From: Nitrospira sp.
Lineage (GTDB): Bacteria; Nitrospirota; Nitrospiria; Nitrospirales; Nitrospiraceae
Length of the DNA: 64,000 bases
Direction of reading: 5' to 3'
Assembly: GCA_016788885.1 (NCBI GenBank)
Contig: JAEURX010000017.1
Coordinates: forward strand, 1-64,000
In this document: positions 20,505-40,494 of the stretch, piece after piece
How the letters are laid out: every line of letters starts with the position of its first letter
How positions within the stretch are numbered: position 1 is the stretch's first letter
Notes under the pieces: model-generated
The model's database searches: none
Told to the model about the DNA's origin: nothing
What the model saw: only the letters and a program-made list of their open reading frames with translations
Made by a program: the position numbers and the translations under genes

Positions 20505-21815
20505 TCAGGCGGCGGCCTTCATCCGTAAGTGCGCGGCAACCCGCTGCCCCTGGGCAATCGCGTCCTCCATCGACGTATGCTCCCACAGCCCATACCTTCC
20601 GATCGACGAAATGCCTCGCCGGTCCAGTTCTCCCAACAGCTCCTTCACTGCCCGTCCTCGATACCGATCGAACAGCACGTAGGCATAATGCAGATCCTTC
20701 ACATCCGACATCACGACGTCATCCGACGGGAGCAACACACCGGCCTGCGCCAATCCCCGGCGAACCCGTTCGATGAGCGATGCGTCCGACTCCCGCTCCG
20801 TCGGCTGATGCGAAATTTCCACATAGAGCGAGCTGCATCCTGGCTGGCCCATCGAGGCAGAGAAATTCATGGGGAACCCAGCCCGATAGAACGGGTACCG
20901 GTGCTCCGGGAAATAGATCCAGTGTTTGTCTGAAATGCGTTCCCGAGCGACGGCGAGATTCACGTTGTACACGGACACCCAACGCAGCGACTCAGCCAGT
21001 TCCCGCATCGATGCCGGGAGATCGACGCACCGGCGAACGAGTTCCGGCAATGGAATCGTCGAGATGAGACGGTCGTACTCCTCGGTGCGTTCCCCCTGAG
21101 CACTCCGGAAGACAGCCCGATGCCTGCCCGTCTCGATCTCCACCAATTGGGAATCGAACGCCAGATTCTCCACCGAGGGCAGGAACGCCTCCGGCAATAC
21201 CTTGATACCGCCGCTCACCGGGTACTGAAACGACGGGTTATAGCCGAAGGCCTTGTCCTTTATGCCCAACGCACCGCTGACGACATCCTTCACGTCCGGC
21301 TTCGGGACAAGCCACGACACCCAGTCGGAGGTCAGCTCATCGAGCGGCACCTGCCACAGCTTTTCATTGAACGGCACCATGAAATGCTTGGCGATTCCCT
21401 CACCTAGGCTCTCGACAATCCACTGTTTAAAGGAACGACCCTCCGCCGGCGGCTTGGAGACAGGATCCGACAATGTGGCGATGAAGCCCAGGAGACACTC
21501 GCGCACGACTTCTGGCGGCAGACCATGGGTATTCACCTGGAACGGATATTCCGTATACGTGTCATGTGAGAACACGTACGACTTGCGGGCATGTCGCTGC
21601 AGTTGGCCGGGGAGCAGGCTTTCCACCAATGCCTTGATCGCCGTCTGGCGAAAATGGAGCAAATGGCCGGTGTAGTCGAACGTGAAGCCGTCTTTCACAT
21701 AGGAACGGCACAGGCCGCCGACCTCGCGTTCCCGCTCCAAAAGCTTGTACCGCAGGCCACGCAGGTGATAGGCCGCACTCAACCCCGCCAAGCCAGCCCC
21801 GACAATCAGAATCAT
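20505..21815 (-). CDS. FAD-dependent oxidoreductase, protoporphyrinogen-oxidase/amine-oxidase-like
   Basis: A 436-residue flavoprotein with an N-terminal dinucleotide fold (ILIVGAGLAGLSAAYHL), the ERE...GGLCRS second motif and FDYTGHLLHF, resembling the UDP-galactopyranose-mutase/PPO-like oxidoreductases found in polysaccharide clusters. It could oxidise or isomerise a sugar nucleotide or lipid-linked sugar, but the substrate is not clear. Its ATG overlaps the upstream WecA-like stop by 4 bp (ATGA), strong evidence for translational coupling in one operon. Confidence 0.82.
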   Translation of the reverse strand: MILIVGAGLAGLSAAYHLRGLRYKLLEREREVGGLCRSYVKDGFTFDYTGHLLHFRQTAIKALVESLLPGQLQRHARKSYVFSHDTYTEYPFQVNTHGLPPEVVRECLLGFIATLSDPVSKPPAEGRSFKQWIVESLGEGIAKHFMVPFNEKLWQVPLDELTSDWVSWLVPKPDVKDVVSGALGIKDKAFGYNPSFQYPVSGGIKVLPEAFLPSVENLAFDSQLVEIETGRHRAVFRSAQGERTEEYDRLISTIPLPELVRRCVDLPASMRELAESLRWVSVYNVNLAVARERISDKHWIYFPEHRYPFYRAGFPMNFSASMGQPGCSSLYVEISHQPTERESDASLIERVRRGLAQAGVLLPSDDVVMSDVKDLHYAYVLFDRYRGRAVKELLGELDRRGISSIGRYGLWEHTSMEDAIAQGQRVAAHLRMKAAA

Positions 21816-22870
21816 ACGGCGCCGGTCCTTTCTGTCGAACGTGCCGGAGCAGCCTCATGGCTCACGGCAACCACTCCGTTGGAGACATTCACACGCGTCA
21901 AGGCCACGGCAGCAGCAGCGAGACCGATGACCGTGAGCCCGCTCAACCCCAGGGCAAGATCCTGAGGCACAGCCATGACGAGCATGCCGATTCCGCCCAG
22001 GACGGCCGCGCCGAGATAACTGAGCAGCACGACCTGCGTGACCGAGAGTCCCCAATGCCGCAGCCGAATCGCCATGTGATCGGGGCTGCCGAGGAAGACC
22101 GGCAGACCGCGCAAGAACCGGATGTACATGACGAACAGCGTATCGAAAATCGGCATGCCGAGAATCAGCACCGGAGTCAGCAGTGAGACGGAATGGCCTT
22201 CCGTATACTTGCCGATCATGGACAAGGCGCCGAGCATCAGGCCGATGAACATCGCGCCGGAATCGCCCATATAGATGGAGGCGGGGCGCCAATTGTAGCG
22301 CAGAAACCCCAGGAGGCTTCCCATGAGCGCTGCCAGCATGAACGCAATGGTTTGGTCACCATTGAGCACCGCCACGACGCACAGAAATGCCGCACTGATG
22401 ATTCCGACACCGGCCGACAACCCGTCCATGATATCCAACAGATTGAACGCGTTAATGATGCCGATCATCCAGAACACCGTCAGCACGATATCGACCCAAT
22501 CGGGAAGGGAGGCGATCTCGATACGGATCCCGCTCTTGATCAGCACGAAGACGGCCAGACACTGTCCTGCCAGTTTCGTGCCCGGCGAGAGCACGCCGAA
22601 ATCGTCGATCAACCCCAACATGACGATCAGGGTTCCCGAGAGCACGATGCCGAGGACGTCCTGCCGAAACTCGAAGGTAAAAGCCAGACTCACGAGAAAC
22701 GCGAGGTAAATCGCCAACCCACCCAGATATGGAACCGGCTCTCGCTGGTGCTTGAGCCGGCCATCGGGGTTGTCGACAATCCCGAACTTCAGTGCAGCCC
22801 GGCGTGCCATGGGCACCCCGTACATCGCCAATAACACGGCAACCACGAATGTGAGGGTGAGTAGAATCAT
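21812..22870 (-). CDS. WecA/MraY-family glycosyl-1-phosphate transferase
   Basis: Polytopic inner-membrane enzyme (352 aa, about ten hydrophobic segments) that moves a HexNAc-1-phosphate from UDP to undecaprenyl phosphate, starting surface glycan synthesis. Diagnostic motifs: IVDNPDGRLKHQREPVPYLGG, LIDDFGVLSPGTKL, FNLLDIMDGLSAG and YNWRPASIYMGDSGAMFIG. WecA-type enzymes supply O-antigen or teichoic acid primers; MraY is normally in the mur/fts cluster, not here. The ATG at 22870 overlaps the upstream glycosyltransferase stop by 4 bp, better than the longer open frame, and the signal for membrane insertion begins there. Confidence 0.9.
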   Translation of the reverse strand: MILLTLTFVVAVLLAMYGVPMARRAALKFGIVDNPDGRLKHQREPVPYLGGLAIYLAFLVSLAFTFEFRQDVLGIVLSGTLIVMLGLIDDFGVLSPGTKLAGQCLAVFVLIKSGIRIEIASLPDWVDIVLTVFWMIGIINAFNLLDIMDGLSAGVGIISAAFLCVVAVLNGDQTIAFMLAALMGSLLGFLRYNWRPASIYMGDSGAMFIGLMLGALSMIGKYTEGHSVSLLTPVLILGMPIFDTLFVMYIRFLRGLPVFLGSPDHMAIRLRHWGLSVTQVVLLSYLGAAVLGGIGMLVMAVPQDLALGLSGLTVIGLAAAAVALTRVNVSNGVVAVSHEAAPARSTERTGAV

Positions 22871-24006
22871 CGGCCCCCAGTCGAGTGCCCATGGCTCGAA
22901 ACCGAGCGATGCAGAGGCCGCGGCGCCGCTTGATTCGGCGCACATTCAGCAAAGGACCGATACACGTCGGCAAGCCGAGGCCCCCACAAGGCCAAGGAGT
23001 AGTGTGATTCCACCGTTCGGCGGCCGGCTTGTCCCATGCGCGCTCGAAGCTCCGGCTGACGGCAGAGCGCGTGCAAGCGTTCATACCACTCGTCTTCGGT
23101 CGTTGCGAGAAATCCGTTCTCCCCGTCCACGATGATGTCGCTATTGACGCCCACAGGCGAGGCCACCGCCGGCAATCCCACTGCGAGATATTGCAACAGC
23201 TTGAGCGCACATTTGCCTCTCGCCCATTCCGTATCCTCCAGCGGCATCACGCCGATTGTGGCATCCTGGAGATCGTCCACCTCGCGCTGCCAGGTCCATG
23301 GGCGAAACTCGATGTCCACGCCTGGGAGCGCCGGGGGCTGAGAACAGACCACGCGAAGCTTCACCGGATACCGTTCTTGGAGCCGGCGGAGCGCGGGCGC
23401 CACCACGTCCAGATATTTGAGATTGTACGCGAGGCCGATCCAGACAATCGTAATGGTCTCATCCGCTCGATCGCGTGCGACCGTCGTGGGAATCGGCTTC
23501 GGTACAAACCGCGCTGTATCCACCACTGTGGGGACCACCGTGACATAGGATGAGAATCGGGTAGCATAGGCGGCCAGCCGATCGTTTCCGACAATGACTC
23601 CCGCCGCCATGGCCAACAGCACAGGCATTTTCCGTTCATGGCCGTGGGTCAGATAAATCGCATCGTCCAGTTCGAACACCAAGCGGTACTGCAGCCAGCA
23701 CAACAGCCGTTCTATCAGCGGAGGCGCATAGGGAAAGAGTTGCCCTTCGATCACGATCAGGTCCTGCCGGCCCAGGGTAAGAAGTGTTCCCAGACGTTTG
23801 AGAAAGCGGGCCAGCACATAAGGAACTTTCAAACAGCCTTGCAGCAGGGAAGAGCGCAATCGAAGAATGGAAAAGTATGTGGCACCGAACAGCGGAGCCA
23901 CATGGCAGTCGATCCCCGCCTGTTGGAGATGAGGCAAGAATTGATAGACGCGATAGCGACTACTCGGGCCCATGGGCGAGCTCTTGGAAAAATACGTGAC
24001 CGTCAT
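22867..24006 (-). CDS. GT4-like glycosyltransferase
   Basis: A 379-residue GT-B-type enzyme. It begins MTVTYFSKSSPMGPSSRYRV and has WIGLAYNLKYLD and the late motif EWARGKCALKLLQYLAVGLP, typical of a glycosyltransferase subgroup with RGKCA; the position usually held by the second Glu of EX7E is Gln. The start is uncertain: ATG at 24006 or a GTG at 24042, neither with a strong ribosome site. It heads the coupled set that runs through WecA and the FAD enzyme. Confidence 0.85.
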   Translation of the reverse strand: MTVTYFSKSSPMGPSSRYRVYQFLPHLQQAGIDCHVAPLFGATYFSILRLRSSLLQGCLKVPYVLARFLKRLGTLLTLGRQDLIVIEGQLFPYAPPLIERLLCWLQYRLVFELDDAIYLTHGHERKMPVLLAMAAGVIVGNDRLAAYATRFSSYVTVVPTVVDTARFVPKPIPTTVARDRADETITIVWIGLAYNLKYLDVVAPALRRLQERYPVKLRVVCSQPPALPGVDIEFRPWTWQREVDDLQDATIGVMPLEDTEWARGKCALKLLQYLAVGLPAVASPVGVNSDIIVDGENGFLATTEDEWYERLHALCRQPELRARMGQAGRRTVESHYSLALWGPRLADVYRSFAECAPNQAAPRPLHRSVSSHGHSTGGR

Positions 24007-24232
24007 GGCGCGTCTATCGCCCCGTTGTCTCGAAATATCCACCGGTTGTGCAGGCGAATCCGACTAGTCAAATAGTACCGGAGTTCTCCGGCAAGGATAG
24101 ATTTTTCGATGTTTCGACGGGGGGAACGAGCGAGGAAATATTACGGTCACTGCGCTCTGAGGCAATGATACAGGGAAACGTTATGGAACTTGCTGGTGAT
24201 CTCGAGACATCAGGGGCCTAGGACATCAAGAA

Positions 24233-25183
24233 TTAAGCAATTGCTTTATTCCCTCTCTCGCATTTGAGCGAAAGCCAGCTCAGCATTCGGAACAGCCCGC
24301 TATTGAAAGATGTTCGGGGTTCCCATCTAAGCTCAGTTCGAATCTTCGAAATATCCAATACATTGCTGGGAACGTCAAAGCTCCGTCCAGGAGAAAATGC
24401 ACACGCAATTTTACGACCAAGCATAGTCTCTATTGCGATAACCACATCTCTAAGACTTTTCCCCTCGCCACTTCCTACATTGAACACTCGATGTTCCCCG
24501 GTATAGGTTGCGATTTTTATGAATGCATCAATAACATCCCCGACATAGATATAGTCTCGGACCACTGAGCCGTCGCCCCAAATCTCTATTTTTTCGTTCC
24601 TCAGAGCTTTATCCAAAAATACACTGACCACGCCTTGAGAACCGGTCGGCTTCTGACGTTCCCCAAACGGATTAGCCAAACGCAGAATACAATAGTCCAG
24701 CCCAGTCATGGCGTGATGAAGATATAAATATTTTTCGGCCATCAGCTTGCTGATACCATAGGCACAAAGGGGTTGAGTAGGATGGCTTTCTGAAATCGGG
24801 ATCCTCTCTGGAATACCGTATACGGTCCCGCCGGAAGATGCGAATATCACCTTCCTGACCTTTTGTTGGGATGCCACCTCAAGAAGGCGCAGCGTCCCCA
24901 GCACGTTAGTTTCCACGTCATAAATGGGATTACCATTTGACGATTTTGGCAATGTGGTCCATGCAAGATGGAAGAGGATGTCACAGCCTGATATCGCGGC
25001 CGATAAGTCATCGTGGTTGACAAAATCTCCTTCGTACCATTCAACAGAGTCAGGACATTGCATACCTTCAAACCGTTGCAGATTAGGCCGATCCAAAACT
25101 CTTACCACATAGCCTTGAGCCAAGAGTCCAATCGCAAGATGAGACCCTAAGAAACCGCCACCTCCGATAATTAGACAGCGCAT
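24233..25183 (-). CDS. NAD-dependent sugar epimerase/dehydratase (extended SDR)
   Basis: A 316-residue nucleotide-sugar enzyme resembling UDP-glucose 4-epimerase. It has LIIGGGGFLGSHL for NAD binding (about 4-16), SSGGTVYG with the catalytic serine region, the YGISK Tyr/Lys pair near 146-150, and the late motif RDYIYVGDVIDAF. It would produce an epimerised hexose for the glycan. Its start overlaps the preceding glycosyltransferase by 13 bp. Base composition is visibly AT-richer than in the genes to its left. Confidence 0.9.
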   Translation of the reverse strand: MRCLIIGGGGFLGSHLAIGLLAQGYVVRVLDRPNLQRFEGMQCPDSVEWYEGDFVNHDDLSAAISGCDILFHLAWTTLPKSSNGNPIYDVETNVLGTLRLLEVASQQKVRKVIFASSGGTVYGIPERIPISESHPTQPLCAYGISKLMAEKYLYLHHAMTGLDYCILRLANPFGERQKPTGSQGVVSVFLDKALRNEKIEIWGDGSVVRDYIYVGDVIDAFIKIATYTGEHRVFNVGSGEGKSLRDVVIAIETMLGRKIACAFSPGRSFDVPSNVLDISKIRTELRWEPRTSFNSGLFRMLSWLSLKCERGNKAIA

Positions 25184-26547
25184 CGAACCTCACGCTTCTG
25201 CCGCACAATGTCCGCATAAACCTGCGTTAGTTCCTTTGCGTAGTCAGAAATCGACTTTGGTTTGTTTGTCTTGGATAGCTGCCGAACGCGTTCCCTATTG
25301 CGTGCAAGCTGCGCGATCATCGATGCCAGTTCTGAGGCGTCTCCTGGAGCAAATAATAATCCATTGTCATTATGTCGTACTACCTCTGACATACCTCCAA
25401 GATTTGAGGCGATTACCGGGCACCCTGCGGCCTGAGCTGAATAGATAACCAGCGGGGTATTCTCGTACCAAATTGATGGAACGACCAAAACATCGAGTGA
25501 TGCCAATATCGCTCCGATTTGGCTATTGGGAAACGTGCCGCAAAATTCGATTCGACTATCACTACCGGCAACCTGTTTCAGTTCTTGCACATAAGCTGGA
25601 AATTGTCCTGTATCACCATACACCTTCAACTCTACCGCCTCGCTTTGAGGCAACGACCGAATGGCTCGAATCAGGACGTGTGCCCCTTTGTGTTTGTAAA
25701 GAGTTCCGATAAAACCGAGCCGCAGACGCCTGTCATTACTTCCGAATACCCTCTCCGAATACGAGTGCGAAAGATCAATTCCATATGGGCTAACTACCAT
25801 GTTGTCAGACACATATCCATTCTGTTTGAGTGTACGCTCCAAGATCCGAGAAGGAACGAGGACTCTATCGATCTTCCTGAAGCAACTCCTTAGGAAATCA
25901 GGCCGGTGAACCAAGGCCTGGATATGGGAGATAGGGCCTTTCGCAACACGAGGCATTCGCCTTACGGCCTGAACTGCGCGCGCAACAAGCCAATCCGGGG
26001 CAATTGAAAAAACAGAGTCGATCGACCGGGGCTGACTAAGCGACACGATGTGCCGAAGACAATTCACACTGTTCACGTCGGGCCCGGCACATAGGGAATT
26101 GTTCGGCAGGAGCAACTGAATCGTCGGGCACACAAGCCAGAAATCGGTTGGGGTCATGACCGTGGGAACATCGAGCCTGTAGCAGGCTTCAACCATTGAG
26201 GCGGACATGCGAAGCATATGAAAGAAGTGCACAACATCAGGACGCACACGCTTCAGATAGCTTGTGAAATGCTCTCCAAAGAAAGTATTGTTGTGCTCTG
26301 CTTCCGCGATATTCTCTTGCTGCCCCATGGGTACACGGTGGTGATAGAACCGCTCAACCCGGAAACCGCAGTACTCATAGGAATCGAATCTCTCCTCGTC
26401 CTGCAATGGTCTCTTTGTGTGAAACCCGGCAAAGATTGTCACCTCATGCCCTTGCCGCCGTAGCTCTTTGGCAGTATCAAGCGTGAGGGTCTCAGTCCCG
26501 CCCGTAGAATCAGGGTAGAACTGATGGACCGTGAGCAGAAGCTTCAT
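25171..26547 (-). CDS. GT4-family glycosyltransferase
   Basis: A 458-residue GT-B enzyme starting MKLLLTVHQFYPDSTGGTET, with the GGTE donor/acceptor loop, LRLGFIGTLYKHKG (start of the C-terminal fold) and VPSIWYENTPLVIYSAQAAGCP. The EX7E second Glu is Ser. Its insert around 165-215 (a Cys-containing stretch with LLLPNNSLCAGPDVNSVNC) is shared with the 27577 protein, so the two are paralogues probably acting on similar acceptors. It overlaps the epimerase gene. Confidence 0.9.
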   Translation of the reverse strand: MKLLLTVHQFYPDSTGGTETLTLDTAKELRRQGHEVTIFAGFHTKRPLQDEERFDSYEYCGFRVERFYHHRVPMGQQENIAEAEHNNTFFGEHFTSYLKRVRPDVVHFFHMLRMSASMVEACYRLDVPTVMTPTDFWLVCPTIQLLLPNNSLCAGPDVNSVNCLRHIVSLSQPRSIDSVFSIAPDWLVARAVQAVRRMPRVAKGPISHIQALVHRPDFLRSCFRKIDRVLVPSRILERTLKQNGYVSDNMVVSPYGIDLSHSYSERVFGSNDRRLRLGFIGTLYKHKGAHVLIRAIRSLPQSEAVELKVYGDTGQFPAYVQELKQVAGSDSRIEFCGTFPNSQIGAILASLDVLVVPSIWYENTPLVIYSAQAAGCPVIASNLGGMSEVVRHNDNGLLFAPGDASELASMIAQLARNRERVRQLSKTNKPKSISDYAKELTQVYADIVRQKREVRCAV

Positions 26548-26701
26548 GGCTCAATCTGTCCTTGGCGAATGGTCCCGCCTAGAGCACATCTCTCAACACG
26601 CTAGTGGTGCCTGAAACCTGGCCTACGTTTCTGGCTGGTCCAGAACAGCCACGCCCCACGCAGTTGCAGGACTTTTCCCTCAACCCGAATGAGCAATCGT
26701 C

Positions 26702-27580
26702 TCACCTTCTCGGCCTAAGCACAACGATATCCTGAAAGTCATGTATGGCCCCTCTCCGGTAATCCAGCACCTCAAACCATTGAGTCCAATGCTCGAAAAT
26801 GTATGTTTCCGGAATGAATGTAATGCCATATTGAAAAGGCAGGTTGGTTACACACCACCCCATTGCTCTCGATAACCATCGCCGAAGTGTATTGGCGGAA
26901 GCTGTGAGGTGTCCATGCTGCAAAATGAATGCATGCTCGCCTCGCGCAAATAACCGCCTCGCTTTCTCAAACAGCACTCTATCCACCGCAATCATTTCCT
27001 GAATAGAAACTTCATTGATAGCTCGCTCCAACGCGCGAGCACCGTGGACCGTAAGAAACAGAACACCCTCCGAGGCACAAATACGTCGAAGCTCGGCAAG
27101 GAACTCGTCCTGACTCTTCTCGGTGAGATGAGTAAAGACTGAGATCGACGTAATCGCATCAAACTCCTTATCTCTGTAGGGCAATGGCGGGCTGACTGAT
27201 GTTCTTATCACATCAACATAGGACAGATTCTGACTTACCCACTTCACGTGGCGCGCATCAACATCGCAGGCCGACACCTTATGCGGATGCCCCTTGAGCA
27301 TACGGGCTAATCTCCCACAGCCACAGCCGAAGTCAAGAATCCTTCTGTATTCAGAGAGTGCTTTCGTGGATGCCTCTGAGAGGGCGCAATAGAAATCGGC
27401 CCCATGGCTTGCAAAATCCTGCTCGCTGTTAAGCCCCGACACGTTGTACATCAAATCACGTGGTGGGAAAGGGGCGACATACTCCCGTAAGGCATCATTC
27501 TCGAAAACGCCAGTTCTATTGAGCCACGTCCAGTCGTTAATGGAAAGTTGACAGCCCAGCTTAAAATCAGTGCAGCTCAA
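26702..27580 (-). CDS. SAM-dependent methyltransferase
   Basis: A 292-residue class I methyltransferase: motif I RILDFGCGCGRLARML, an acidic motif II (CDVDARH) and the post-I strand ITSISVFTHL. It overlaps the upstream glycosyltransferase stop by 4 bp, so is part of the same operon. It probably O-methylates or N-methylates a sugar in the glycan or caps the chain; that is inferred from context. A 154-bp gap separates it from the next gene. Confidence 0.85.
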   Translation of the reverse strand: MSCTDFKLGCQLSINDWTWLNRTGVFENDALREYVAPFPPRDLMYNVSGLNSEQDFASHGADFYCALSEASTKALSEYRRILDFGCGCGRLARMLKGHPHKVSACDVDARHVKWVSQNLSYVDVIRTSVSPPLPYRDKEFDAITSISVFTHLTEKSQDEFLAELRRICASEGVLFLTVHGARALERAINEVSIQEMIAVDRVLFEKARRLFARGEHAFILQHGHLTASANTLRRWLSRAMGWCVTNLPFQYGITFIPETYIFEHWTQWFEVLDYRRGAIHDFQDIVVLRPRR

Positions 27581-28920
27581 ATCACACCTAGTCCCTTATA
27601 AATTTCCAGAACATCTTGGGTCATCATCCGAGTCGTCCTTGGATAATCTGTCTTCACTATCATCTTCGGCAACAGACTTGGCTCATCGAGGATTCTCCGA
27701 AGCACTCGCTCAAGGTCATCAACATTGCCTCGTTGAAACCAATATCCATTTTCCCCTTCCTCTACGAACTCCGTTAGGCCTGCTACGTCAGATACAATAA
27801 CCGGTGTATGACTTGCCAAGGCGCATAGCAGAATCAGCGGGCTATTCTCATGCCATTGCGATGGGATAACAATGAAATCCATTTGGGATAGCACGTCCGC
27901 CATGGCATCTTTTGGGAAAACACCTCGAAAGTGCACCTCACGCTTCTCCGCGACCCTTTTCATGCTATTCATATAACCGGGGTCTTGGTCTGTTGGCCCA
28001 AACACATGCAACTCGGCAATTCCCCTCGGTAGTCGGCAAAATGCTTCGACTAGAATGTCTACACCTTTATGACTGGCAATCTGCCCAATAAATCCAAACC
28101 GAACGGGTCCATCCACCTCCCTTCGCAATTTTGGTCTTCGGGGAAGATCTACACCGAATCGACTCAGATGAATCGGCGCGCGTAGCCCGTTCGCAACATA
28201 GGCATTCTTGAGAAATTGTGTAGGAGCTATCACCGCCCGATATTTCGAATATCGAGCAGTTAAGATGTCAGGACGTTCCCTAATATCATGTACAGCCTCC
28301 GCAATTTCTTTCGAACACACTCCATTCACATTCGCCAAGGACACAAGCAGCGATCCGGCAAGCCTAGCCCACTGAACTGAACCGGCCCACCGCCCGAGAA
28401 GAGAAACGTCCCCACTCCCACTCCGAGCCCGCAAATAACAGGCGCTGCAGTTAGACCGTTTCTGGTTCGGTCCTTCGCAGAGAGACCCGTCAGCAGCCAC
28501 GAGTTTGTTGTTGAAACAAAACCCAAAAAAGTCTGTGAGCGTTGCTACCGCTACCAAATTCAGCTCGGCAACGACATCCAACAATACTGCGGTGTGATTG
28601 ATCAGATGCGTGACGTGGACTATGTCGGGTCTGATCTCACAAAGGACGTCCCGGATCAGATTATGCAAGGCAACCTGATAGTAGGTATCCTTAACTCGGC
28701 GGTGAACAAAAAAGTTTTTATCAATACAATACACTGGAATATCATCATATTTGTAGGTGGATAGAATGCGCCCGGTCGTCGGTTCACCAGGAAAGATTGC
28801 CGTGACCACGATCGGCTGATGCCCAAGTGCCAACAAATTTCTTGCGAGCTCCAATGTGTAGGTTTCTGTGCCATAGAAATGATTAGGAAAAAAACAATGA
28901 ACGAATAGCGCAACTTTCAT
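27577..28920 (-). CDS. GT4-family glycosyltransferase
   Basis: A 447-residue GT-B enzyme beginning MKVALFVHCFFPNHFYGTETYT, close in plan to the 25171 protein. It carries the cysteine-rich insert (EGPNQKRSNCSACYLRA) and the late motif HENSPLILLCALASHTP in which the second Glu of EX7E is Cys. The ATG at 28920 overlaps the upstream fusion gene's stop by 4 bp and is preferred to the longer frame starting at 28962. Confidence 0.9.
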   Translation of the reverse strand: MKVALFVHCFFPNHFYGTETYTLELARNLLALGHQPIVVTAIFPGEPTTGRILSTYKYDDIPVYCIDKNFFVHRRVKDTYYQVALHNLIRDVLCEIRPDIVHVTHLINHTAVLLDVVAELNLVAVATLTDFFGFCFNNKLVAADGSLCEGPNQKRSNCSACYLRARSGSGDVSLLGRWAGSVQWARLAGSLLVSLANVNGVCSKEIAEAVHDIRERPDILTARYSKYRAVIAPTQFLKNAYVANGLRAPIHLSRFGVDLPRRPKLRREVDGPVRFGFIGQIASHKGVDILVEAFCRLPRGIAELHVFGPTDQDPGYMNSMKRVAEKREVHFRGVFPKDAMADVLSQMDFIVIPSQWHENSPLILLCALASHTPVIVSDVAGLTEFVEEGENGYWFQRGNVDDLERVLRRILDEPSLLPKMIVKTDYPRTTRMMTQDVLEIYKGLGVI

Positions 28921-31868
28921 CGCACCGGCCTCAAGAGCTTCGCATACAACTCCCGATAACATTCAATCATGGTTTCAACCGAAAATTTCTCCTGTGCACG
29001 CTTTTTGTTTATGAGGCCGATTGAGGAACATTTGGCGTGATCTTGCAACAAGTCTAAGATCATGTCGGCCAAGCGGTCACCATTTCCTGGTGGAGCTAGC
29101 CACTCACGCGTCCCAAGAATTTCTGCGAGCCCCCCTACGTCATAACCAACAACTGGAATCCCATAGTTCATAGCCAGAACGCTCACATGGCCGAAGCTCT
29201 CCTTCCAGACAGGCGCCACAAAGACACCCATTTCTTCATACAGTGCAGGAAGCTCTTCATATGATACATAGCCAGTAAATCGAAACGCGTTGGAGACCCC
29301 ATGGAGCTGCACAGTTTTTTGGTACGTCTGCAGCAAGGCACCACCTCCAACAATTAGCGCCTTCGTGCTCGGCCGGCGCATGACAACTTTAATAAACACA
29401 TCGATTGCTTGGGGCGATAGCTTATCCTCTTCAAGCCGATAGACCATCCCGATGCAATCCCGTGGTGCATCCACACTGTGCTTCCTTCGAAAAACACTAA
29501 AATTGCTCCCAGGATAAATGACGAGGCTCTTCCTATCTCGCCGCCCAAAGGTTTCCAACACATAGTCACTGACATAAACATAGCGGGAAATTGCCTCGCC
29601 CCAGTAAGGGGTCACCGGCGTGTTGACATTCTCAACAATTCGACATCCAAACTTGTTCGCTGCATTCAAGGCCGCCTCGTACCAGGCCTTATCTGTCTCG
29701 CCCCAATAATGGACGTGAAAAAGGTTCGGCCTAAAAGTGCACAGGTAGCTGAAAATCCCTTTCTCCAAATCGTCAACGCAAGACAATTCGTGCTCATGAA
29801 TGACCACCCCTGTGTAACTCGGCGGATCAGGCTGAAACCTAGTAATGATCTCCTGTTCATATTGGTGGCCCAGTCGCTCAATTAGATCAACGACCAATCG
29901 AGAAGATCCTCCAATATTAAAGTTCGCAATGGCATGAACCACCTTGGGGCGGCTACTCTCTATCGGACGCATGATCCGTGCTTCATATGAATTGCATTGA
30001 GGAGCAGGAAGGTGCCGATGGTCGAACCACCGCCTAACTCTCGCAGTTGCTCCGGCAAGCCGCCGTACAAGAGCAGATGCAAATACCTCCATTACCAGAC
30101 CAACGATAGCTGTCACTGTGCGAGGAGAACCAGTCTTCGTGCGTAGTGCTCGTTGTAGACGAAAGAGTCGCGGCCCGACCAATGCTAGAAATTCTCGTTC
30201 TTTGGCCGCGAGCTGCTCCTGTAGTGAAAAAATTCGCTCATGCGCCTTGTAATACTCAAATTGCAGAGCACTAAATCGTTTCTCATTCATGATCGAAGCG
30301 GCAACATGATCGACGGATGAATCGAGATAGCACATCTCGAGGACTTCACGGATCGGTTGATCCGAGCAAATGGCCACATATGCCAGAGGGAAGCATGCAT
30401 CCCTTACGGTCACTGAAGGCACGGCTGGGCCACAGAATGTAAGCGGCATGTGTGGAGTTTGATCGGACCCGATACTCACACTGGGACGTATCCACTGTTT
30501 CAACAGGAGAACGTGTCCAAAAGACAGTTTGAGCAAATGGAGGAATTGCCGTTCCGTCATTTCGCGAAGATGAAACGGGTTCGCACCGTAATTCTGAGTA
30601 ACGTCAGGGTTTGGCGTAGAAATAATGAGCTGGCCGCCAGGCACGAGCAACTTGTGGCACTGGCGGACCACCTCAACTTGGGCCTCCTCGTTGACGTGCT
30701 CGATCATTTCAAAGCACGTGATGACATCAAATGAGTGATCGGGGAAGCTCCTCCCCAAGTCTGACCGCTTCTCGAACAAGAGCCTAGGGTTATGGTGGTG
30801 ACGCCTGGCCCAGTCAAGCGCTGTATCGTCAATATCCAAACCAACAACACTATCGGCTACTTCTGCGAGAAGTGCCGCCCCATATCCCGTACCACAGCCA
30901 AAATCTAAAACTTTTGCCCCTGCAACTCGATGCTTCGCAAACTGATATCTGGGAAGGTGCTCATATTCTGCCACTTTAGACCACGTCCCCGGCACATACC
31001 GCTCGTGCATAAACGATTTAAAATTACTACCCTCTGCCTTACATAACAGCCCTGCCGACCCAGCAAGACCGCTATTCAAGGTCGAATACTCGTCTTCATA
31101 CTTAATTTTCCCCAAACTCTCCAGAGGAAAGAGCCCGGCTATCTCCACCTTTGCAAAGTGCAGACTCGTCAAGAGTGCGTGCAACGATTCAGCAGAATAG
31201 TAGACAAGATGAGACGGTGGATGACGGTAAGCCCACCCCGCAGGATCCGCTATGGCATCATAGGATCTAGCATTAGGGGTAGTAATTATGATTCTTGTCT
31301 GAGGACCGATTGCGCCCTTGCTGAAGAGCGTATAGAACAACCCATAGGGATCGGCAAGATGTTCAATTACGTCGAACAAGACAATGAGATCGAACTCATG
31401 GGCGATGAGATTTTCCAGGCAATCTACGACAAAAAATGCATTCCCATGCCTCAAATTGGTGACTCGGCGCGCATGATCTGACACCTCTACCCCAAAGCAT
31501 TTCCACCCCCGCTGAGCCGCCACTGCCAAGTGATTTCCATACCCGCAGCCGATGTCCAATACAGATCGCCCAACTGCACTTCCCTCAAATTCATCCAACA
31601 GTTCTGCGAACATCCCCAACATGGGCTCTGTCTGAGCGTCATAGTCACAATATCCCCCTCGTTCCCCCCCTTCAAACCAGTCTTCACGGTCATACAGCGA
31701 TTTCAGCGTATGCTGCGAAGGCATCGGCCATACAAAATCCGTCGCAGAGGACGGGCAACGCCAAATCGTGTAGCCTTCAATGGAACAGAGAAACTTAGTT
31801 TGGGTTGAGCTAGAAATTGGACAAACAGGACTACCACCTTCAGGCAGAGCGGATCGGCTTACACCCAT
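28917..31868 (-). CDS. Three-module protein: two methyltransferases, coiled coil, GT4 glycosyltransferase
   Basis: A 983-residue fusion. Residues 15-50 are a degenerate zinc-knuckle segment (CPIS and CPSS where C-x2-C is usual). Methyltransferase 1 has VLDIGCGYG at 103-111; methyltransferase 2 has VLDFGCGTGYG at 320-330. A helical, Glu/Leu/Gln-rich stretch at about 528-578 (EYYKAHERIFSLQEQL) looks like a short coiled coil. From about 641 a GT4 module follows, with ANFNIGGSSRLV and ESFGHVSVLAMNYGIP, the second Glu of EX7E being Leu. SD AGGAGG precedes the ATG at 31868, which begins just after the previous gene's stop. Known chain-terminating enzymes of ABC-dependent O-antigens combine modification domains with a coiled coil, so a capping role is a reasonable guess. 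Confidence 0.85.
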   Translation of the reverse strand: MGVSRSALPEGGSPVCPISSSTQTKFLCSIEGYTIWRCPSSATDFVWPMPSQHTLKSLYDREDWFEGGERGGYCDYDAQTEPMLGMFAELLDEFEGSAVGRSVLDIGCGYGNHLAVAAQRGWKCFGVEVSDHARRVTNLRHGNAFFVVDCLENLIAHEFDLIVLFDVIEHLADPYGLFYTLFSKGAIGPQTRIIITTPNARSYDAIADPAGWAYRHPPSHLVYYSAESLHALLTSLHFAKVEIAGLFPLESLGKIKYEDEYSTLNSGLAGSAGLLCKAEGSNFKSFMHERYVPGTWSKVAEYEHLPRYQFAKHRVAGAKVLDFGCGTGYGAALLAEVADSVVGLDIDDTALDWARRHHHNPRLLFEKRSDLGRSFPDHSFDVITCFEMIEHVNEEAQVEVVRQCHKLLVPGGQLIISTPNPDVTQNYGANPFHLREMTERQFLHLLKLSFGHVLLLKQWIRPSVSIGSDQTPHMPLTFCGPAVPSVTVRDACFPLAYVAICSDQPIREVLEMCYLDSSVDHVAASIMNEKRFSALQFEYYKAHERIFSLQEQLAAKEREFLALVGPRLFRLQRALRTKTGSPRTVTAIVGLVMEVFASALVRRLAGATARVRRWFDHRHLPAPQCNSYEARIMRPIESSRPKVVHAIANFNIGGSSRLVVDLIERLGHQYEQEIITRFQPDPPSYTGVVIHEHELSCVDDLEKGIFSYLCTFRPNLFHVHYWGETDKAWYEAALNAANKFGCRIVENVNTPVTPYWGEAISRYVYVSDYVLETFGRRDRKSLVIYPGSNFSVFRRKHSVDAPRDCIGMVYRLEEDKLSPQAIDVFIKVVMRRPSTKALIVGGGALLQTYQKTVQLHGVSNAFRFTGYVSYEELPALYEEMGVFVAPVWKESFGHVSVLAMNYGIPVVGYDVGGLAEILGTREWLAPPGNGDRLADMILDLLQDHAKCSSIGLINKKRAQEKFSVETMIECYRELYAKLLRPVR

Positions 31869-32612
31869 TTACGGCAACCTCCTGCTGTCCCCCGACCATT
31901 GCGACTGTACTCGCTGGCCGCTCTTTCTTGTCGCCACACACATCCACAACAACGTATCTTCCTGGTCCTGACACATTCGGTCCAACCGTAGCGCCACGCG
32001 ATTCACAGTCCTAATAAGGAATTTCCGTCGGATGCCATGCTCTACTAGATGATTCAGGAATATTTGCCCGATCAACGCATATACCCCTCCGCAGGCCATG
32101 ATGCTTCCAGCTTCAAAACCATGGCGAGAAAGACATTCCCGAATCCCATACCGAGTAAATCGCCAATAGTCATGAGGAGCCTCATGATGCCGCCACTGCA
32201 TAGGGGCGGTGAGAATCAGCACACCGCCGGGCCTCGCAAGACGTTGGCACTCAGCTAGATAGAAATTAAAATCAGGCACATGCTCAAGAGTTTGCGTCGA
32301 GAGAATCGTGTCCACACTCTCGCTTGATAGGGGCAATGGTTGATCTGGCTCAACTCGAATATCAATTTTTGTCCCAGCAGCAGCGGCGACATCCGCACCG
32401 ATGTACTTTGTTATTTTTGGCTCAAACAATGCCCGGTAGGGTTGTCCGCCACAGCCGTAGTCAAGCAGAATCCCTTTGGCCTGTGACAATGCTTGCTCCT
32501 CTAGCCATGCGTGTAAATAACTAAGAACAATGTAATGATGACTGTCGCTGGCAAGACGCATATCTCTCGTCCGCACAATTCCACCAAAAGCATCTTGACG
32601 ATCAGATCTCAT
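31869..32612 (-). CDS. SAM-dependent methyltransferase
   Basis: A 247-residue class I methyltransferase with motif I GILLDYGCGGQPY, TQTLEHVPD and LARPGGVLILTAP, followed by a HDYWRFTRYGI segment. It overlaps the wzt gene by 11 bp and abuts the fusion gene. Probably modifies the same glycan. The role of the C-terminal 60 residues is unclear. Confidence 0.85.
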   Translation of the reverse strand: MRSDRQDAFGGIVRTRDMRLASDSHHYIVLSYLHAWLEEQALSQAKGILLDYGCGGQPYRALFEPKITKYIGADVAAAAGTKIDIRVEPDQPLPLSSESVDTILSTQTLEHVPDFNFYLAECQRLARPGGVLILTAPMQWRHHEAPHDYWRFTRYGIRECLSRHGFEAGSIMACGGVYALIGQIFLNHLVEHGIRRKFLIRTVNRVALRLDRMCQDQEDTLLWMCVATRKSGQRVQSQWSGDSRRLP

Positions 32613-33873
32613 TGTTATTGGTGCTCAGCTCACCATGGAACCACCTGCAGGGGAGCACCACCTTCCCCCACGTCGGGAATTTCGAGCGAACTGAAAATGA
32701 CACCGTCAGTTCTGTGAGTGCATAGCATACGCAGAGATCCTTAGAATATGCGCCAAAGGCAACTCGATAATCGCCAGGGGCAAGACAGTTGGGAGTCAAG
32801 ATGAAGCGACCAGTATGAATCCCACCCGAAGGCATAGTCGGCCACCAAACGTTCTCCTCATAGCTCGTCTGCCCAATGACAAGATCTCCGTCCGCGCGAT
32901 AAATACTAACCGCGAATACAACTGCCTCAAGCGATTGAACGGCGAACAAGGTGAATTTAAACCCAATGTCTTGATTTGGATAATAGATCGGCTTCTCGTT
33001 CACACAATAACCATCCAGACCAACTTCGACAAATTTGGCCGCCCTGCTTTCCTGCTGTGCCACAATGTTGCCCTGAATGTCCTGAGAAAGCGGAGGAGAT
33101 CCATTAACCTTCGTGGCTGAGACACAATACTCCTGGCATATGGCAACCGGGTTGCCAATCGAAATAAGTCGTCCACTATCCAGCCATATCGCTCGATCAC
33201 AGAATATCTGGAGAGTGCTCAAGTCGTGCGAGACAAACAAGATAGTCACGCCCTGAGCACGAAGAGCCAAAATACGCTCCATGCATTTATTTCGAAATTC
33301 AAAATCACCGACACTGAGCGCTTCATCGACAATCAGCACATCAGGGGCAGCATGAACAGCCACAGCAACTGCCAGACGGACAAACATACCACTCGAGTAG
33401 GTTCTTACGGGTTGGTCGATCGAGGCCCCGATATCGGCAAATGCCAGGATATCGTCCAACTGTCCGTCGATGTCTGCTTTCGACAGACCAAGCAACGACG
33501 CGTTCAGAAACACATTTTCCAGGCCCGTAAAATCAGGATGAAAACCTGCTCCCAGTTCAAGCAGCGCGGCAACACGGCCATTGACCTCAACGGTTCCGCT
33601 GGTCGGACTCAAGGTGCCCACGATCAACTGCAACAGCGTGGACTTCCCCGATCCGTTCCGGCCGATGATGCCCAGCGTCTCCCCTTTCCTCACTTCGAAG
33701 GAAACATTCTCTATTGCATGGACCTCCCGGTAATACTGTGCCGGTTCGCGTCCGAGACACTTCTGCACCACAGGTAATATCCACTGCTTTCCTCTGTCGC
33801 GCGGGCGATCGTATAACCGATAGGTCTTGGAGAGATGGCGGACGCGAATCGCCCACTCAGAGGACATCGGCAA
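32602..33873 (-). CDS. wzt: ABC exporter ATPase for polysaccharide, Wzt type
   Basis: A 423-residue ATPase of the O-antigen/teichoic-acid exporter family: Walker A GRNGSGKST (71-79), the family's YSSGM signature (159-163) in place of LSGGQ, and Walker B VLIVDEAL (179-186). Beyond about 260 a beta-sandwich Wzt_C-type domain follows, which in characterised systems recognises the non-reducing end of the finished chain. It overlaps the wzm stop by 17 bp. Base composition changes along the gene, with the start (33.5-33.9 kb) GC-rich like the backbone and the 3' part AT-rich. Confidence 0.92.
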   Translation of the reverse strand: MPMSSEWAIRVRHLSKTYRLYDRPRDRGKQWILPVVQKCLGREPAQYYREVHAIENVSFEVRKGETLGIIGRNGSGKSTLLQLIVGTLSPTSGTVEVNGRVAALLELGAGFHPDFTGLENVFLNASLLGLSKADIDGQLDDILAFADIGASIDQPVRTYSSGMFVRLAVAVAVHAAPDVLIVDEALSVGDFEFRNKCMERILALRAQGVTILFVSHDLSTLQIFCDRAIWLDSGRLISIGNPVAICQEYCVSATKVNGSPPLSQDIQGNIVAQQESRAAKFVEVGLDGYCVNEKPIYYPNQDIGFKFTLFAVQSLEAVVFAVSIYRADGDLVIGQTSYEENVWWPTMPSGGIHTGRFILTPNCLAPGDYRVAFGAYSKDLCVCYALTELTVSFSVRSKFPTWGKVVLPCRWFHGELSTNNNEI

Positions 33874-34681
33874 ATACCTTCCGTGTCTTCTGAAACCAGA
33901 GGAGCCCGCCCCATGCGATCAGGTAACTGCCTGCGCAATAGAGACCGATACCGATCCAGGACGGAGCCTTGCCCCAAATAAGCAGGTCTTGCGCTTGTGT
34001 GATGAGAAACGTCAGCGGATTGGCGTAAAGCAAGACTCGGTAGGCCTCCGGAAATGCCTCAGCTGGATAAAACACCGGCGAAAGAAACAGCATGATAGTC
34101 GTCAAGGGCCCGCTCGCTTGCCCGATGTCACGCACAAACACTCCAGCTGATGCTAAGAACCATGACATGCCGATGGTCACCAGGGACAGCGGCAAGAGCA
34201 GAAGGGGCGCCAGCAACATCGTCCAGTGCAAGGCATGATGGAGAAGTCCATAAAACGCTATCAACACCAGCGCGCTGACCGCCGCATGGAACAGCGCCGA
34301 ACCGAGCGATGTCCACGCCAGGATTTCCAATGGAAAGACAATTTTTTTGACGTAGTTGCTGTGATTTACTATCAAGTAGGGCGCGCGGTGGATACTTTCT
34401 GCAAACAACGAATGGACGATCAGTCCGGAGAACAGCAGCAGGCCGAAATCGAGCGCGCTTTCCCCTTCCTGTCCCCACCGCATTCCGAAGGCACCCCGAA
34501 AGACCAGCGTATATACCGTCAGCATGACCATGGGATGCAGAAATGCCCACAACATTCCTAGGAGGGATCCTCGATACCGGCTTGCGATCTCACGTTTGGT
34601 CAATTGACAAATCAGATTCCAATGGGCGGACATACTGGTCAGCACCATGAAGGGAGAGAGGTCGTCTCGCTGGGAAATCAT
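33857..34681 (-). CDS. wzm: ABC-2 permease for polysaccharide export, Wzm type
   Basis: A 274-residue membrane subunit with six predicted helices and the family N-terminus LTKREIASRYRGSLLGMLWAFLHP, plus FLSPVFYPAEAFPE near the end. With Wzt it forms the exporter that moves undecaprenyl-linked polysaccharide across the inner membrane. First gene of the coupled cluster on this strand; no promoter was recognised in the 116 bp upstream. Confidence 0.92.
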   Translation of the reverse strand: MISQRDDLSPFMVLTSMSAHWNLICQLTKREIASRYRGSLLGMLWAFLHPMVMLTVYTLVFRGAFGMRWGQEGESALDFGLLLFSGLIVHSLFAESIHRAPYLIVNHSNYVKKIVFPLEILAWTSLGSALFHAAVSALVLIAFYGLLHHALHWTMLLAPLLLLPLSLVTIGMSWFLASAGVFVRDIGQASGPLTTIMLFLSPVFYPAEAFPEAYRVLLYANPLTFLITQAQDLLIWGKAPSWIGIGLYCAGSYLIAWGGLLWFQKTRKVFADVL

Positions 34682-37509: not shown

Positions 37510-39507
37510 TCACCCGGCGAGGCCTTTTGCTTCGACGGCGGCACGCAACGGCGCCACATCGACATTTAAAAAAGCCCGCTCGATATTGTTTTTGCTCCAC
37601 TGATCGTATCGCGCCTGCCGCACCTGAATTTCTTGAAGCTCTCGCTTCGCGTCATCGATGTGGCCCGCATCGACCCACAAACGGGCTAACAACGCACGAG
37701 CAGGAAGAAAATTCGGCTCCAGTTGCTCAGCCTCTTTCGCCTGCTGCTCGGCTAACGGTCGCTCGCCGAGCATCCAATGAAGTCGAGCCTGTTCATACCG
37801 GTAGGGAGCAGAAAATGGCGCGAGCCGGACAGCCCGTTCGTACACCCGCAATGCGGCCCGCAACCAGGATTTCTGCTGTTCATCGAGAAGACCTGACGCG
37901 GATGACGTCTGCGACGCCGACACATACAACTGGGCCAACAGTCCCAACAATCGACTGTCCAACGGATTTAACTCTATCGCCTCCTTGAACTCCGCATGAG
38001 CCAATCGAAACATCTCTTTGTCTCGGGACACATCAAATGCGTTCGCGTAGACAGACCCGAGACCATGGTGATAGAGCGATTTGCCTGGATCCAACGTAAT
38101 CGCGCGCTTGAATCCTTGAATTGCGATTTCTGTTTCTCCTGCCACGGCCTGCCGAGATGCCTTATCGAAAGTCAGCCAGGCCATCCCCAACCGACTGACT
38201 TCCGCCCCACATAGCAACAACAAACAGGCAGCACCCATTCCCCACGCAAGACGCCCCCGAATCGGGATGATCTGTATGGCATCGGTGCTGCGATGGGTCA
38301 TCCGAGCAGCCGACACTATCAGTCCTGCGCAGAGCACAAGCAGGATCGCGAGAGCCGACTCACGCAAACTGGAGTCCAACGCGGCATGGACCAGAAGGGC
38401 GATCCCTCCGCCTCCTATCCCGAGGATGAGACTTCTCTGCCACCGAAATAATCTTGATTGAAGCACCTGCAGAATGTCACGCACGACCAGGCCTATGCCG
38501 GCCAGAAAGACAAGCAGCGCTCCCACGCCCATCTCCACACCTATTTGCAGATAGTCGTTGTGGGGAGTGTGAGCGACTTTTCCGTATCGGACAATTTCCC
38601 CTTCGACCGGAAACGCATACGAAGGATACGTATATTGGTAGAGCCCTAGGCCAATTCCAAACGGATGATCAGCCATCTGGGCCATTGCGCCCTGCCACAT
38701 CTGCCAACGGGCATACGAAACGGGGTTCTGTTCATGCTCCGCAAGCACCCGTTCTTTGAGCGGAGTAGGAATGATAAGCGCCGCGAACAGGAGCGCGACA
38801 AAGCCCATACCGGCCAACTTCCACCCATATCGGGCCGCCAAGATCCACACTGTGGCCGCGAGCCAGGCCACCAGGCCTCCGCGTGACTGAGTAAAGGTCA
38901 TTGCGATCAGGAGAATGCCCAAAGCTGATCCCATGCCGGCCCACCACAATACAGGCGACAGCGAGGACCGATACAATATCGCGCCTTTCCGGTATCCGTA
39001 CACGGCGATGCTCAAAAGAACTGCCCAGCTGACGGTGAGATAGCTGGCGAGGAAATTCGGGTTAAAAAATGTTCCGCTGGGTCTGACAATATTCCAAACA
39101 ACGCCCTGCACGATTGCCCAGGCAGCTTCCCCTAATCCCATCACGATAATGATCATCGTCAACGTATGCAGACGCTCCCACCGGTCGACAACAGAGACCA
39201 ACAGATAAAACAAGATTGCGTATCCCGTGATCATCACCAGCCACTGCCGGCTCTGATGGACATAGGGGGAAAAAATCGTGGCTGCGACAGCAAAGCCCAG
39301 GAACGCCAGGACGACATATCTGGTTCCAAGCCGTGGAACAATTAAACGACCCGCCCGGATTGCATGAATGAACGTTCCACCAAGCCAGGCCACAATCAGA
39401 AGCCGTATGATCATTTGCGCCGGATGCGTCGTTCCGCCCTCCTGAAGCGGCGAAAAGATCACCAGCGCGCACATTACGATGACTGGCATCGAAGACAGGA
39501 ATTGCAT
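37510..39507 (-). CDS. O-antigen-ligase/Wzy-domain membrane protein with C-terminal TPRs
   Basis: A 665-residue polytopic protein. About twelve hydrophobic segments fill residues 8-430, with the ligase-family periplasmic loop (RWQMWQGAMAQMADHPFGIGLG and the later HTPHNDYLQIGVEMG). Residues 450-660 carry TPR units (FKRAITLDPGKSLYHHGLG). Members of this fold join O-antigen to lipid A (WaaL), polymerise it (Wzy) or glycosylate pilin (PglL/TfpO). Its place directly after a pilin gene favours the last, without proof. Start assigned at the ATG at 39507, which precedes the first helix; the preceding 63 codons of open frame hold the terminator of the pilin gene. Confidence 0.85.
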   Translation of the reverse strand: MQFLSSMPVIVMCALVIFSPLQEGGTTHPAQMIIRLLIVAWLGGTFIHAIRAGRLIVPRLGTRYVVLAFLGFAVAATIFSPYVHQSRQWLVMITGYAILFYLLVSVVDRWERLHTLTMIIIVMGLGEAAWAIVQGVVWNIVRPSGTFFNPNFLASYLTVSWAVLLSIAVYGYRKGAILYRSSLSPVLWWAGMGSALGILLIAMTFTQSRGGLVAWLAATVWILAARYGWKLAGMGFVALLFAALIIPTPLKERVLAEHEQNPVSYARWQMWQGAMAQMADHPFGIGLGLYQYTYPSYAFPVEGEIVRYGKVAHTPHNDYLQIGVEMGVGALLVFLAGIGLVVRDILQVLQSRLFRWQRSLILGIGGGGIALLVHAALDSSLRESALAILLVLCAGLIVSAARMTHRSTDAIQIIPIRGRLAWGMGAACLLLLCGAEVSRLGMAWLTFDKASRQAVAGETEIAIQGFKRAITLDPGKSLYHHGLGSVYANAFDVSRDKEMFRLAHAEFKEAIELNPLDSRLLGLLAQLYVSASQTSSASGLLDEQQKSWLRAALRVYERAVRLAPFSAPYRYEQARLHWMLGERPLAEQQAKEAEQLEPNFLPARALLARLWVDAGHIDDAKRELQEIQVRQARYDQWSKNNIERAFLNVDVAPLRAAVEAKGLAG

Positions 39508-39666
39508 AGGTGTGTTCGCAGACTTGATGCGACCGATACCTCCTGCTTTATCAGAGACCGGCAATTTGGCAAAGTGAAAGTGAAATTGGATACTGGGCGA
39601 GAGAGACAGGGCAGGAAAAAACAGGCTGTTCAGAGAACGGAAAAGATCCGACCAGCCAAAAGAACA

Positions 39667-39693
39667 CGGGGGAGGAACATCGTTCCTCCCCCG
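39667..39693 (-). terminator. Intrinsic terminator after pilin gene
   Basis: A perfect 12-bp inverted repeat (CGGGGGAGGAAC, 39667-39678, and complement at 39682-39693, loop ATC), followed on the minus strand by TGTTCTTTT. It lies 27 bp past the pilin stop. It would separate a highly expressed pilin message from the ligase operon, with read-through possible. Confidence 0.75.
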
Positions 39694-39719
39694 CATCGGA
39701 ACACTCCTGCGAGTGATCG

Positions 39720-40241: not shown

Positions 40242-40494
40242 AACGCCTCCCTTTCCTATTGTTGCCACTTCACTCGACACATGCTTCATTCCTGTCTCTT
40301 CATTCGGAACCACGTGTTCACGCCTGACAGATCTTGGGGAGAGCAGGTTCTATGCCCAACACCTCCTTCCTCTGAATTCTTGCTTTTCGTTTAATATTCC
40401 TGATACTTACGCTGTTCACCGCGTGACGCTCTGTCTCGCCTACCACTAGCCGGTTCCCTTTTCCGTCACCAGGTGACAAGTTTTGCTGCCACCA

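What the first reader, a model, noticed from the sequence alone, without database searches (positions are those of the whole stretch)
28917..31868. Methyltransferase-methyltransferase-coiled coil-glycosyltransferase fusion as candidate chain-capping enzyme
One 983-residue protein contains two methyltransferase modules (103-111 and 320-330 motif I), a helical coiled-coil-like stretch near 528-578 and a GT4 domain. In ABC-dependent O-antigen systems chain length is set by capping enzymes with a coiled-coil ruler (WbdD), and the cap is read by the Wzt C-terminal domain. This protein lies two genes from such a Wzt. The combination of two methyltransferases with a GT4 is unlike the kinase-methyltransferase of WbdD, so it may be a different capping design.
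Basis: partly seen in the sequence, partly recalled or inferred. Interest (0 to 1): 0.65.

Follow-up and report, generated by a model that had tools for sequence, protein, structure and literature searches.

The report
Methyl-capping length-control enzyme for surface sugar
A Nitrospira gene encodes two methyltransferases, a helical rod and a sugar transferase in one protein that very probably stops growth of a surface sugar chain by methylating its tip, and it is inherited together with the exact part of the export pump that would recognise that tip.

Summary
One 983-aa ORF (minus strand) carries MT1, MT2, a helical spacer and a GT4 domain. The MT1-MT2 head is a family (about 45-58% identical) in Nitrospira, Planctomycetota, Desulfuromonadales, beta-, gamma- and alphaproteobacteria. 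In 22 of 26 loci it lies just downstream of wzm-wzt. The head is followed by a coiled coil of variable length and then by nothing, a GT4, another GT4 or a GT2. GT-less members end in a basic amphipathic helix, as described for WbdD.

The strongest evidence is in wzt. The window's Wzm and Wzt N-half match those of eleven sister Nitrospira. At codon ~170 that similarity ends, and the Wzt C-domain instead matches only C-domains of MT1-MT2 genomes. The C-domain and this enzyme therefore arrive together in a 9.2-kb serotype cassette. Three genomes in which the two genes are unlinked still carry the matched C-domain.

[quoted passage not shown] Two corrections: the window's own segment scores below coiled-coil cut-offs, and MT-coil-GT terminators are already known (Klebsiella O7). 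New variant of a known kind. The chemistry is untested.

The parts
28917..31868 (-). MT1-MT2-helical spacer-GT4 fusion, 983 aa (candidate chain terminator fused to a glycosyltransferase)
   Evidence: same architecture in L029
31014..31835 (-). Residues ~12-285: N-terminal zinc-ribbon-like segment (consensus CPVC..LC..RC..C, partly degenerate here) and MT1 (class I SAM methyltransferase)
   Evidence: Pfam PF13489; alignment A3; model
30354..30977 (-). Residues ~298-505: MT2, the most conserved module (UbiG/PF08241-like)
   Evidence: kept where MT1 shrinks
30141..30308 (-). Residues 521-576: single 56-residue helix; coiled coil in most homologues
   Evidence: model; COILS-type scores
30015..30125 (-). 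Residues 582-618: second helix, basic and partly amphipathic, possible membrane contact
   Evidence: model; hydrophobic moment/charge
28920..29951 (-). Residues 640-983: GT4 (GT-B) glycosyltransferase; second Glu of the EX7E motif replaced in all 10 homologues
31869..32612 (-). MTx: stand-alone methyltransferase between wzt and the fusion
32602..33873 (-). Wzt, ABC ATPase with C-terminal Wzt_C (PF14524) carbohydrate-binding domain
32605..33111 (-). Wzt C-domain of the MT1-MT2-associated type (presumed cap reader)
   Evidence: clade; profile match to the A. aeolicus Wzt CBD
33317..33371 (.). Left edge of the swapped serotype cassette, inside wzt at about codon 170
   Evidence: DNA similarity to 11 sister Nitrospira ends here; protein identity crosses over
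24114..24126 (.). Right edge of the swapped cassette, just upstream of the conserved GT gene
   Evidence: three sister genomes
33857..34681 (-). Wzm, ABC-2 permease (80-89% identical to Wzm of 10 of 11 sister Nitrospira)
27577..28920 (-). GTa, GT4 family; start taken at the internal ATG overlapping the fusion's stop
26702..27580 (-). MTy methyltransferase
25171..26547 (-). GTb, GT4 family
24233..25183 (-). NAD-dependent sugar epimerase/dehydratase
21812..22945 (-). WecA-like polyprenyl-phosphate glycosyl-1-phosphate transferase (conserved flank)
   Evidence: PF00953; 91-93% identical in sister genomes

Best explanation
The protein is the chain terminator of an ABC-transporter-dependent O-polysaccharide, fused to a glycosyltransferase. 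The N-terminal MT1-MT2 head O-methylates the non-reducing end of the undecaprenyl-linked chain, with MT2 as the essential methyltransferase. The helical rod (about 56 + 37 residues here, 117-145 in a relative) holds the head away from the membrane and the polymerising GT modules, so that only chains above a minimum length are capped. The basic helix after the rod sits at the membrane. The fused GT4 adds a backbone or penultimate residue. The cap is read by the C-domain of the neighbouring Wzt, which releases the chain for export by Wzm-Wzt. Shown here: anatomy, family conservation, variable rod length and C-terminal modules, and co-inheritance of head and Wzt-C. Inferred: methylation at the chain end, ruler function, membrane contact, and physical recognition of the cap by this Wzt-C.
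For: (1) Directly downstream of wzm-wzt in 22 of 26 loci of other genomes. (2) Coiled coil after MT2 in 19/27 members against 12/288 background ORFs; rod length varies. (3) C-terminal modules are exchangeable: none, GT4, another GT4, GT2, the pattern reported for O7 ORF6 orthologues (PMC11231755). (4) GT-less members end in a basic amphipathic helix: 10 of 12 with D>=2.0 against 2.8% of 288 others. (5) All 23 linked Wzt C-domains plus three unlinked ones form one clade (94/98), 40-55% identical to the window's apart from the near-identical L029; 19 other Wzt C-domains, mostly of the same genomes, show no significant similarity. (6) Crossover inside wzt: identity to 11 sisters 80/87/77% before codon 170 and 46/40/8/13% after; to other-phylum MT1-MT2 genomes 46/74/59% then 61/56/34/49%. 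(7) MT2 distances track Wzt-C (r 0.89; partial r 0.74-0.81), not Wzt-N or Wzm once Wzt-C is accounted for. (8) Sister cassettes at the same locus carry an MT-coil protein or an MT-GT2-GT4 fusion right after Wzt. (9) Literature: Wzt CBD reads terminal 3-O-methyl-mannose (PMC9445017); a one-MT plus coil protein is needed for the O-methyl group in E. coli O101 (PMC13168486); MT-only WbdD suffices in E. coli O8 (PMC3482155).
Against: No biochemistry or LPS structure. The window's own spacer is below the coiled-coil cut-off and its helix has pLDDT about 54-79. L030 has the fusion but no Wzt_C in its genome. G808 has the Wzt-C type without a detected head, on a short contig. The cassette holds two further methyltransferases (MTx, MTy), so internal methylation is possible. 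Wzt-C is also the physically closest gene part to the head, so linkage explains part of the correlation. The Wzt-C pocket is not identical to the A. aeolicus one: Trp362 aligns with Leu.
Confidence: 0.77

Rival explanations
1. The two methyltransferases decorate every repeat unit (or a side-branch sugar) as the fused GT4 adds it. The helix only links the modules, and chain length is set elsewhere.
For: The cassette has four methyltransferase domains in all; a GT is fused in 9 family members.
Against: Many members have no GT at all. The rod is kept and varies in length. The head is tied to one Wzt-C type, which is expected of a cap writer.
Confidence: 0.13
2. MT1 with its zinc-ribbon-like N-terminus is a sugar C-methyltransferase (KijD1/TcaB9 type) acting on an NDP-4-keto-sugar, so the protein makes a branched sugar for the polymer and is not a terminator.
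For: N-terminal Cys pattern; KijD1 5t6b is among the Foldseek matches; dTDP-sugar-type genes lie beside one related wzt locus (L113).
Against: No C-methyltransferase-specific Pfam domain found in nine family members (window and eight others, E<=0.001 and E<=0.05). MT1 is shrunken in three members while MT2 stays. It does not explain the rod or the Wzt-C linkage.
Confidence: 0.05
3. It is a terminator, but the cap is the methylated sugar added by the fused GT4 (sugar plus methyl as one cap, as Kdo is in O12/O4), so GT4 rather than the methyltransferases stops the chain.
For: GT4 is fused to the head in 9 members; terminal-sugar caps are known (PMC11231755).
Against: In O12 and O7 the terminator is at the head and the polymerase GTs follow the coil (PMC11231755); the GT position is empty or different in many members while head and Wzt-C stay constant.
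Confidence: 0.05

Closest known systems
Klebsiella pneumoniae O7 ORF6 (methyltransferase-kinase-CBM-coiled coil-GT2-GT2; PMC11231755)
   Same: N-terminal modifying head, coiled coil, C-terminal GT modules in one polypeptide; orthologues with and without the GTs; ABC-transporter locus.
   Different: Kinase replaced by a second methyltransferase; no CBM in the terminator; one GT4 instead of two GT2; short rod in the window member.
E. coli O9a/O8 WbdD (PMC3482155)
   Same: Methyltransferase head, helical/coiled-coil stalk, amphipathic C-terminus (in GT-less relatives), next to Wzt with a cap-reading domain. The O8 form is methyltransferase only.
   Different: No kinase; two methyltransferases; GT fused; no close sequence relation detected.
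E. coli O101/O162 MT protein (PMC13168486)
   Same: Methyltransferase domain plus C-terminal coiled coil, needed for O-methylation of long chains.
   Different: One MT, no GT. The single-MT-coil proteins of sister Nitrospira resemble it more.
Aquifex aeolicus Wzt carbohydrate-binding domain, reader of 3-O-methyl-mannose (PMC9445017)
   Same: Window Wzt-C type matches it over about 115 residues (E 4e-4).
   Different: Pocket Trp362 aligns with Leu; extra conserved C-terminal PTWG..HP..W segment.
K. pneumoniae O12 WbbB (PMC11231755)
   Same: Terminator, coiled coil and polymerase GTs in one protein.
   Different: The terminator is a Kdo transferase, not a methyltransferase.

Membership tests
ABC-dependent glycan chain terminators with coiled-coil ruler (general class) | Catalytic terminator head at one end of an extended coiled coil | tested here: met
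   Head MT1-MT2 then coil in 19/27 members; the window member itself is helical but sub-threshold
ABC-dependent glycan chain terminators with coiled-coil ruler (general class) | Encoded with Wzm-Wzt whose Wzt has a C-terminal carbohydrate-binding domain | tested here: met
   22/26 loci adjacent; 25/26 genomes hold PF14524
[quoted passage not shown]
   Needs LPS chemistry or in vitro assay
WbdD (kinase-methyltransferase) | Methyltransferase plus kinase domains before the coiled coil | tested here: not met
   No kinase family in Pfam; MT2 occupies that place
WbdD (kinase-methyltransferase) | C-terminal membrane-binding amphipathic helix | tested here: inconclusive
   Predicted in 10 of 12 GT-less relatives; in the window an internal basic helix at 582-618; binding not tested
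Klebsiella O7 ORF6 type | MT-kinase-CBM-coiled coil-GT2-GT2 order | tested here: not met
   MT-MT-helix-GT4; no CBM between MT2 and helix in the model
Wzt with cap-reading C-domain (PF14524) | ABC ATPase followed by Wzt_C domain above the curated cut-off | tested here: met
   36.4 bits against cut-off 30.4; profile matches the A. aeolicus CBD
Sugar C-methyltransferases (KijD1/TcaB9) | N-terminal zinc-binding and C-terminal domains PF08421/PF08484 around the MT core | tested here: not met
   Neither listed for the window protein (E<=0.001) or eight relatives (E<=0.05)
GT4 retaining glycosyltransferases | GT-B fold and EX7E motif | tested here: inconclusive
   Fold met (Z about 31); second Glu of EX7E absent in all 10 homologues

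The most novel reading that the evidence does not exclude
A kinase-free, two-methyltransferase class of chain terminators that writes its own cap (possibly a doubly methylated sugar), with a dedicated Wzt-C reader that lacks the known methyl-mannose Trp lid. Writer and reader spread between phyla as a unit by recombination inside wzt.
Probability: 0.45. Interest if true: 0.65.

Novelty: new variant of a known kind. Interest (0 to 1): 0.55.

Why it matters
It extends the terminator-ruler strategy, worked out in E. coli and Klebsiella, to nitrite oxidisers and to distant phyla, with a second methyltransferase in place of the kinase. The crossover inside wzt is a natural domain swap: the ATPase half stays with the host while the C-domain changes together with the terminator. 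That makes the cap-writer/cap-reader pairing directly testable by exchanging C-domains. The family's rod ranges from about 56 to 145 helical residues with an otherwise similar head, a ready series for testing the ruler model.

Tried and rejected
Assembly or frameshift artefact: rejected (L029 has the same 983-aa ORF). Chance co-location with wzt: rejected. Plasmid-borne spread: no match in plasmids at 1e-40. Viral homologues: only single-MT-like matches at 21-38% identity. Reciprocal search for the Wzt-C type in 399 genomes of the order of L032's genome and 295 Nitrospirota found only the known one in each, so little extra power. AU test on the Wzt N-half (p 0.11) was uninformative because the sisters already form one side of a branch; DNA breakpoints and binned identity were used instead. 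Whole-model structure search was filled by the GT4 domain, so nothing is concluded about the nearest fold of MT1/MT2. The survey of terminators by Mann and Whitfield (Glycobiology 2019, cwz066) is not held, so it may already list this architecture.
Full report
Observation. The ORF lies on the minus strand, 31868..28917, 983 aa. Pfam gives two methyltransferase domains and a GT4 domain. The Nitrospira MAG_246 homologue (L029, 85% identical) has the same length, order and neighbours, and its DNA is collinear with the window from 38441 to 18146. AlphaFold2 (mean pLDDT 82.8) shows two methyltransferase folds, one helix at 521-576, a second at 582-618 (pLDDT about 54-79 over the first helix), and a GT-B domain with VIA Z about 31 to GT4 enzymes. 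The window's own helix does not reach P 0.5 in a COILS-type calculation.

Family. A protein search over one genome per species found 26 loci with the full or nearly full MT1-MT2 head, 34-85% identical over full length in the alignment A1 and 49-60% over the head alone. Both SAM motifs are conserved. In three Rhodospirillaceae-type members (L050, L052, L053) MT1 is shrunken and MT2 intact, so MT2 is probably the essential one. What follows the head varies: the same GT4 (window and eight others), a different GT4 (L033, L036), a GT2 (L040, L047; L048 looks alike), or nothing. A coiled coil follows MT2 in 19 of 27 members against 12 of 288 other ORFs of the same loci. In L035 the rod is predicted as a 117-residue helix followed directly by another of 28. 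GT-less members end in a basic amphipathic helix (SSPRFLARQLWHATRARLR...) in 10 of 12 cases, against 2.8% of background.

Context. In 22 of 26 loci the head gene follows wzm-wzt directly or after the small methyltransferase MTx; GTa, MTy, GTb and the epimerase recur. Exceptions are L030 (Planctomycetota, no Wzt_C in the genome) and L040, L047, L048, whose genomes hold a Wzt on another contig. The window locus also holds a WecA-like initiator and a Wzy_C-TPR protein of ligase type; no flippase-family domain was listed for the genes scanned here. The Wzy_C protein lies outside the swapped cassette, which fits a ligase better than a serotype-specific polymerase (inference).

Reader and writer travel together. 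The C-domains of the 23 linked Wzt proteins and of the three unlinked ones (L087-L089) form one clade (94/98). Nineteen other Wzt C-domains, mostly from the same genomes, show no significant BLAST similarity to the window's. In eleven sister Nitrospira the same chromosomal site has Wzm 72-89% identical and a Wzt N-half 62-73% identical to the window's, but an unrelated Wzt C-domain. DNA similarity stops at window 33317-33371, inside wzt at about codon 170, in all eleven, and resumes at 24114-24126 in the three genomes checked. Binned identity crosses over at that codon. The window's Wzm is closer to a sister of another serotype (89%) than to L029 of the same serotype (77%). MT2 distances correlate with Wzt-C (r 0.89) and, once Wzt-C is accounted for, not with Wzt-N or Wzm. 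Linkage is a caveat there, and the three unlinked genomes are the answer to it. Among 297 genomes of the Rhodospirillaceae MAG's order, ten have the Wzt-C type and nine the head, all nine shared. Those nine were known beforehand; the one independent find (G808) lies on an 8.7-kb contig without the head.

Sister alleles. At the same site the sisters encode, after Wzt and (in all but L196) an MTx-like gene, a 313-352-aa single methyltransferase with a C-terminal coil in eight of eight tested, followed by a GT2-GT2-GT4 protein (Pfam run on one, L195), or a 1285-1306-aa MT-GT2-GT4 fusion (Pfam run on one, L187). So each Nitrospira O-locus examined has a methyltransferase-headed candidate terminator after Wzt.

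Mechanism. By analogy with WbdD, O7 ORF6, O101 MT and the A. aeolicus Wzt CBD (PMC3482155, PMC11231755, PMC13168486, PMC9445017), the head caps the chain end with O-methyl, the rod sets the minimum length, and Wzt-C reads the cap. Two points differ. There is no kinase. And the Wzt-C pocket, aligned by profile to the A. aeolicus CBD, has Leu where Trp362 lids the methyl group, so the cap is probably not plain 3-O-methyl-mannose read in the same way (inference).

Novelty. The class and the fused format are known; the two-methyltransferase head with its own reader type was not found in the papers held. The 2019 survey that could contain it was not available. Hence: new variant of a known kind.

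Noticed in passing
window 24114-33371: Sharp edges of a 9.2-kb serotype cassette shared by the Nitrospira O-locus; the left edge is inside wzt.
   Followed up: yes
window 28920-29951: GT4 domain lacks the second Glu of the EX7E motif (ESFGQVSxFAM) in all 10 homologues.
   Followed up: partly
L050, L052, L053: MT1 is shrunken (second half lost) while MT2 stays intact.
   Followed up: partly
L042, L045, L049, L053, L054: MAGs labelled Marinimicrobia in NCBI fall in the same GTDB order as a Rhodospirillaceae MAG; the NCBI label looks wrong.
   Followed up: partly
G000:C18:88894-89292 (L005): 2185-aa open frame in the same genome with an MT2-like stretch.
   Followed up: no
G000:C5:41657-42034 (L090): Second Wzt in the genome, with an unrelated C-domain.
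   Followed up: no
window 39720-41022: Two type IV pilin-like genes upstream of the Wzy_C-TPR (O-antigen ligase type) gene at 37510-39696.
   Followed up: no
L186: MT-GT2-WbsX-type fusion (1093 aa) directly after Wzt in a genome of another family of the same order.
   Followed up: partly
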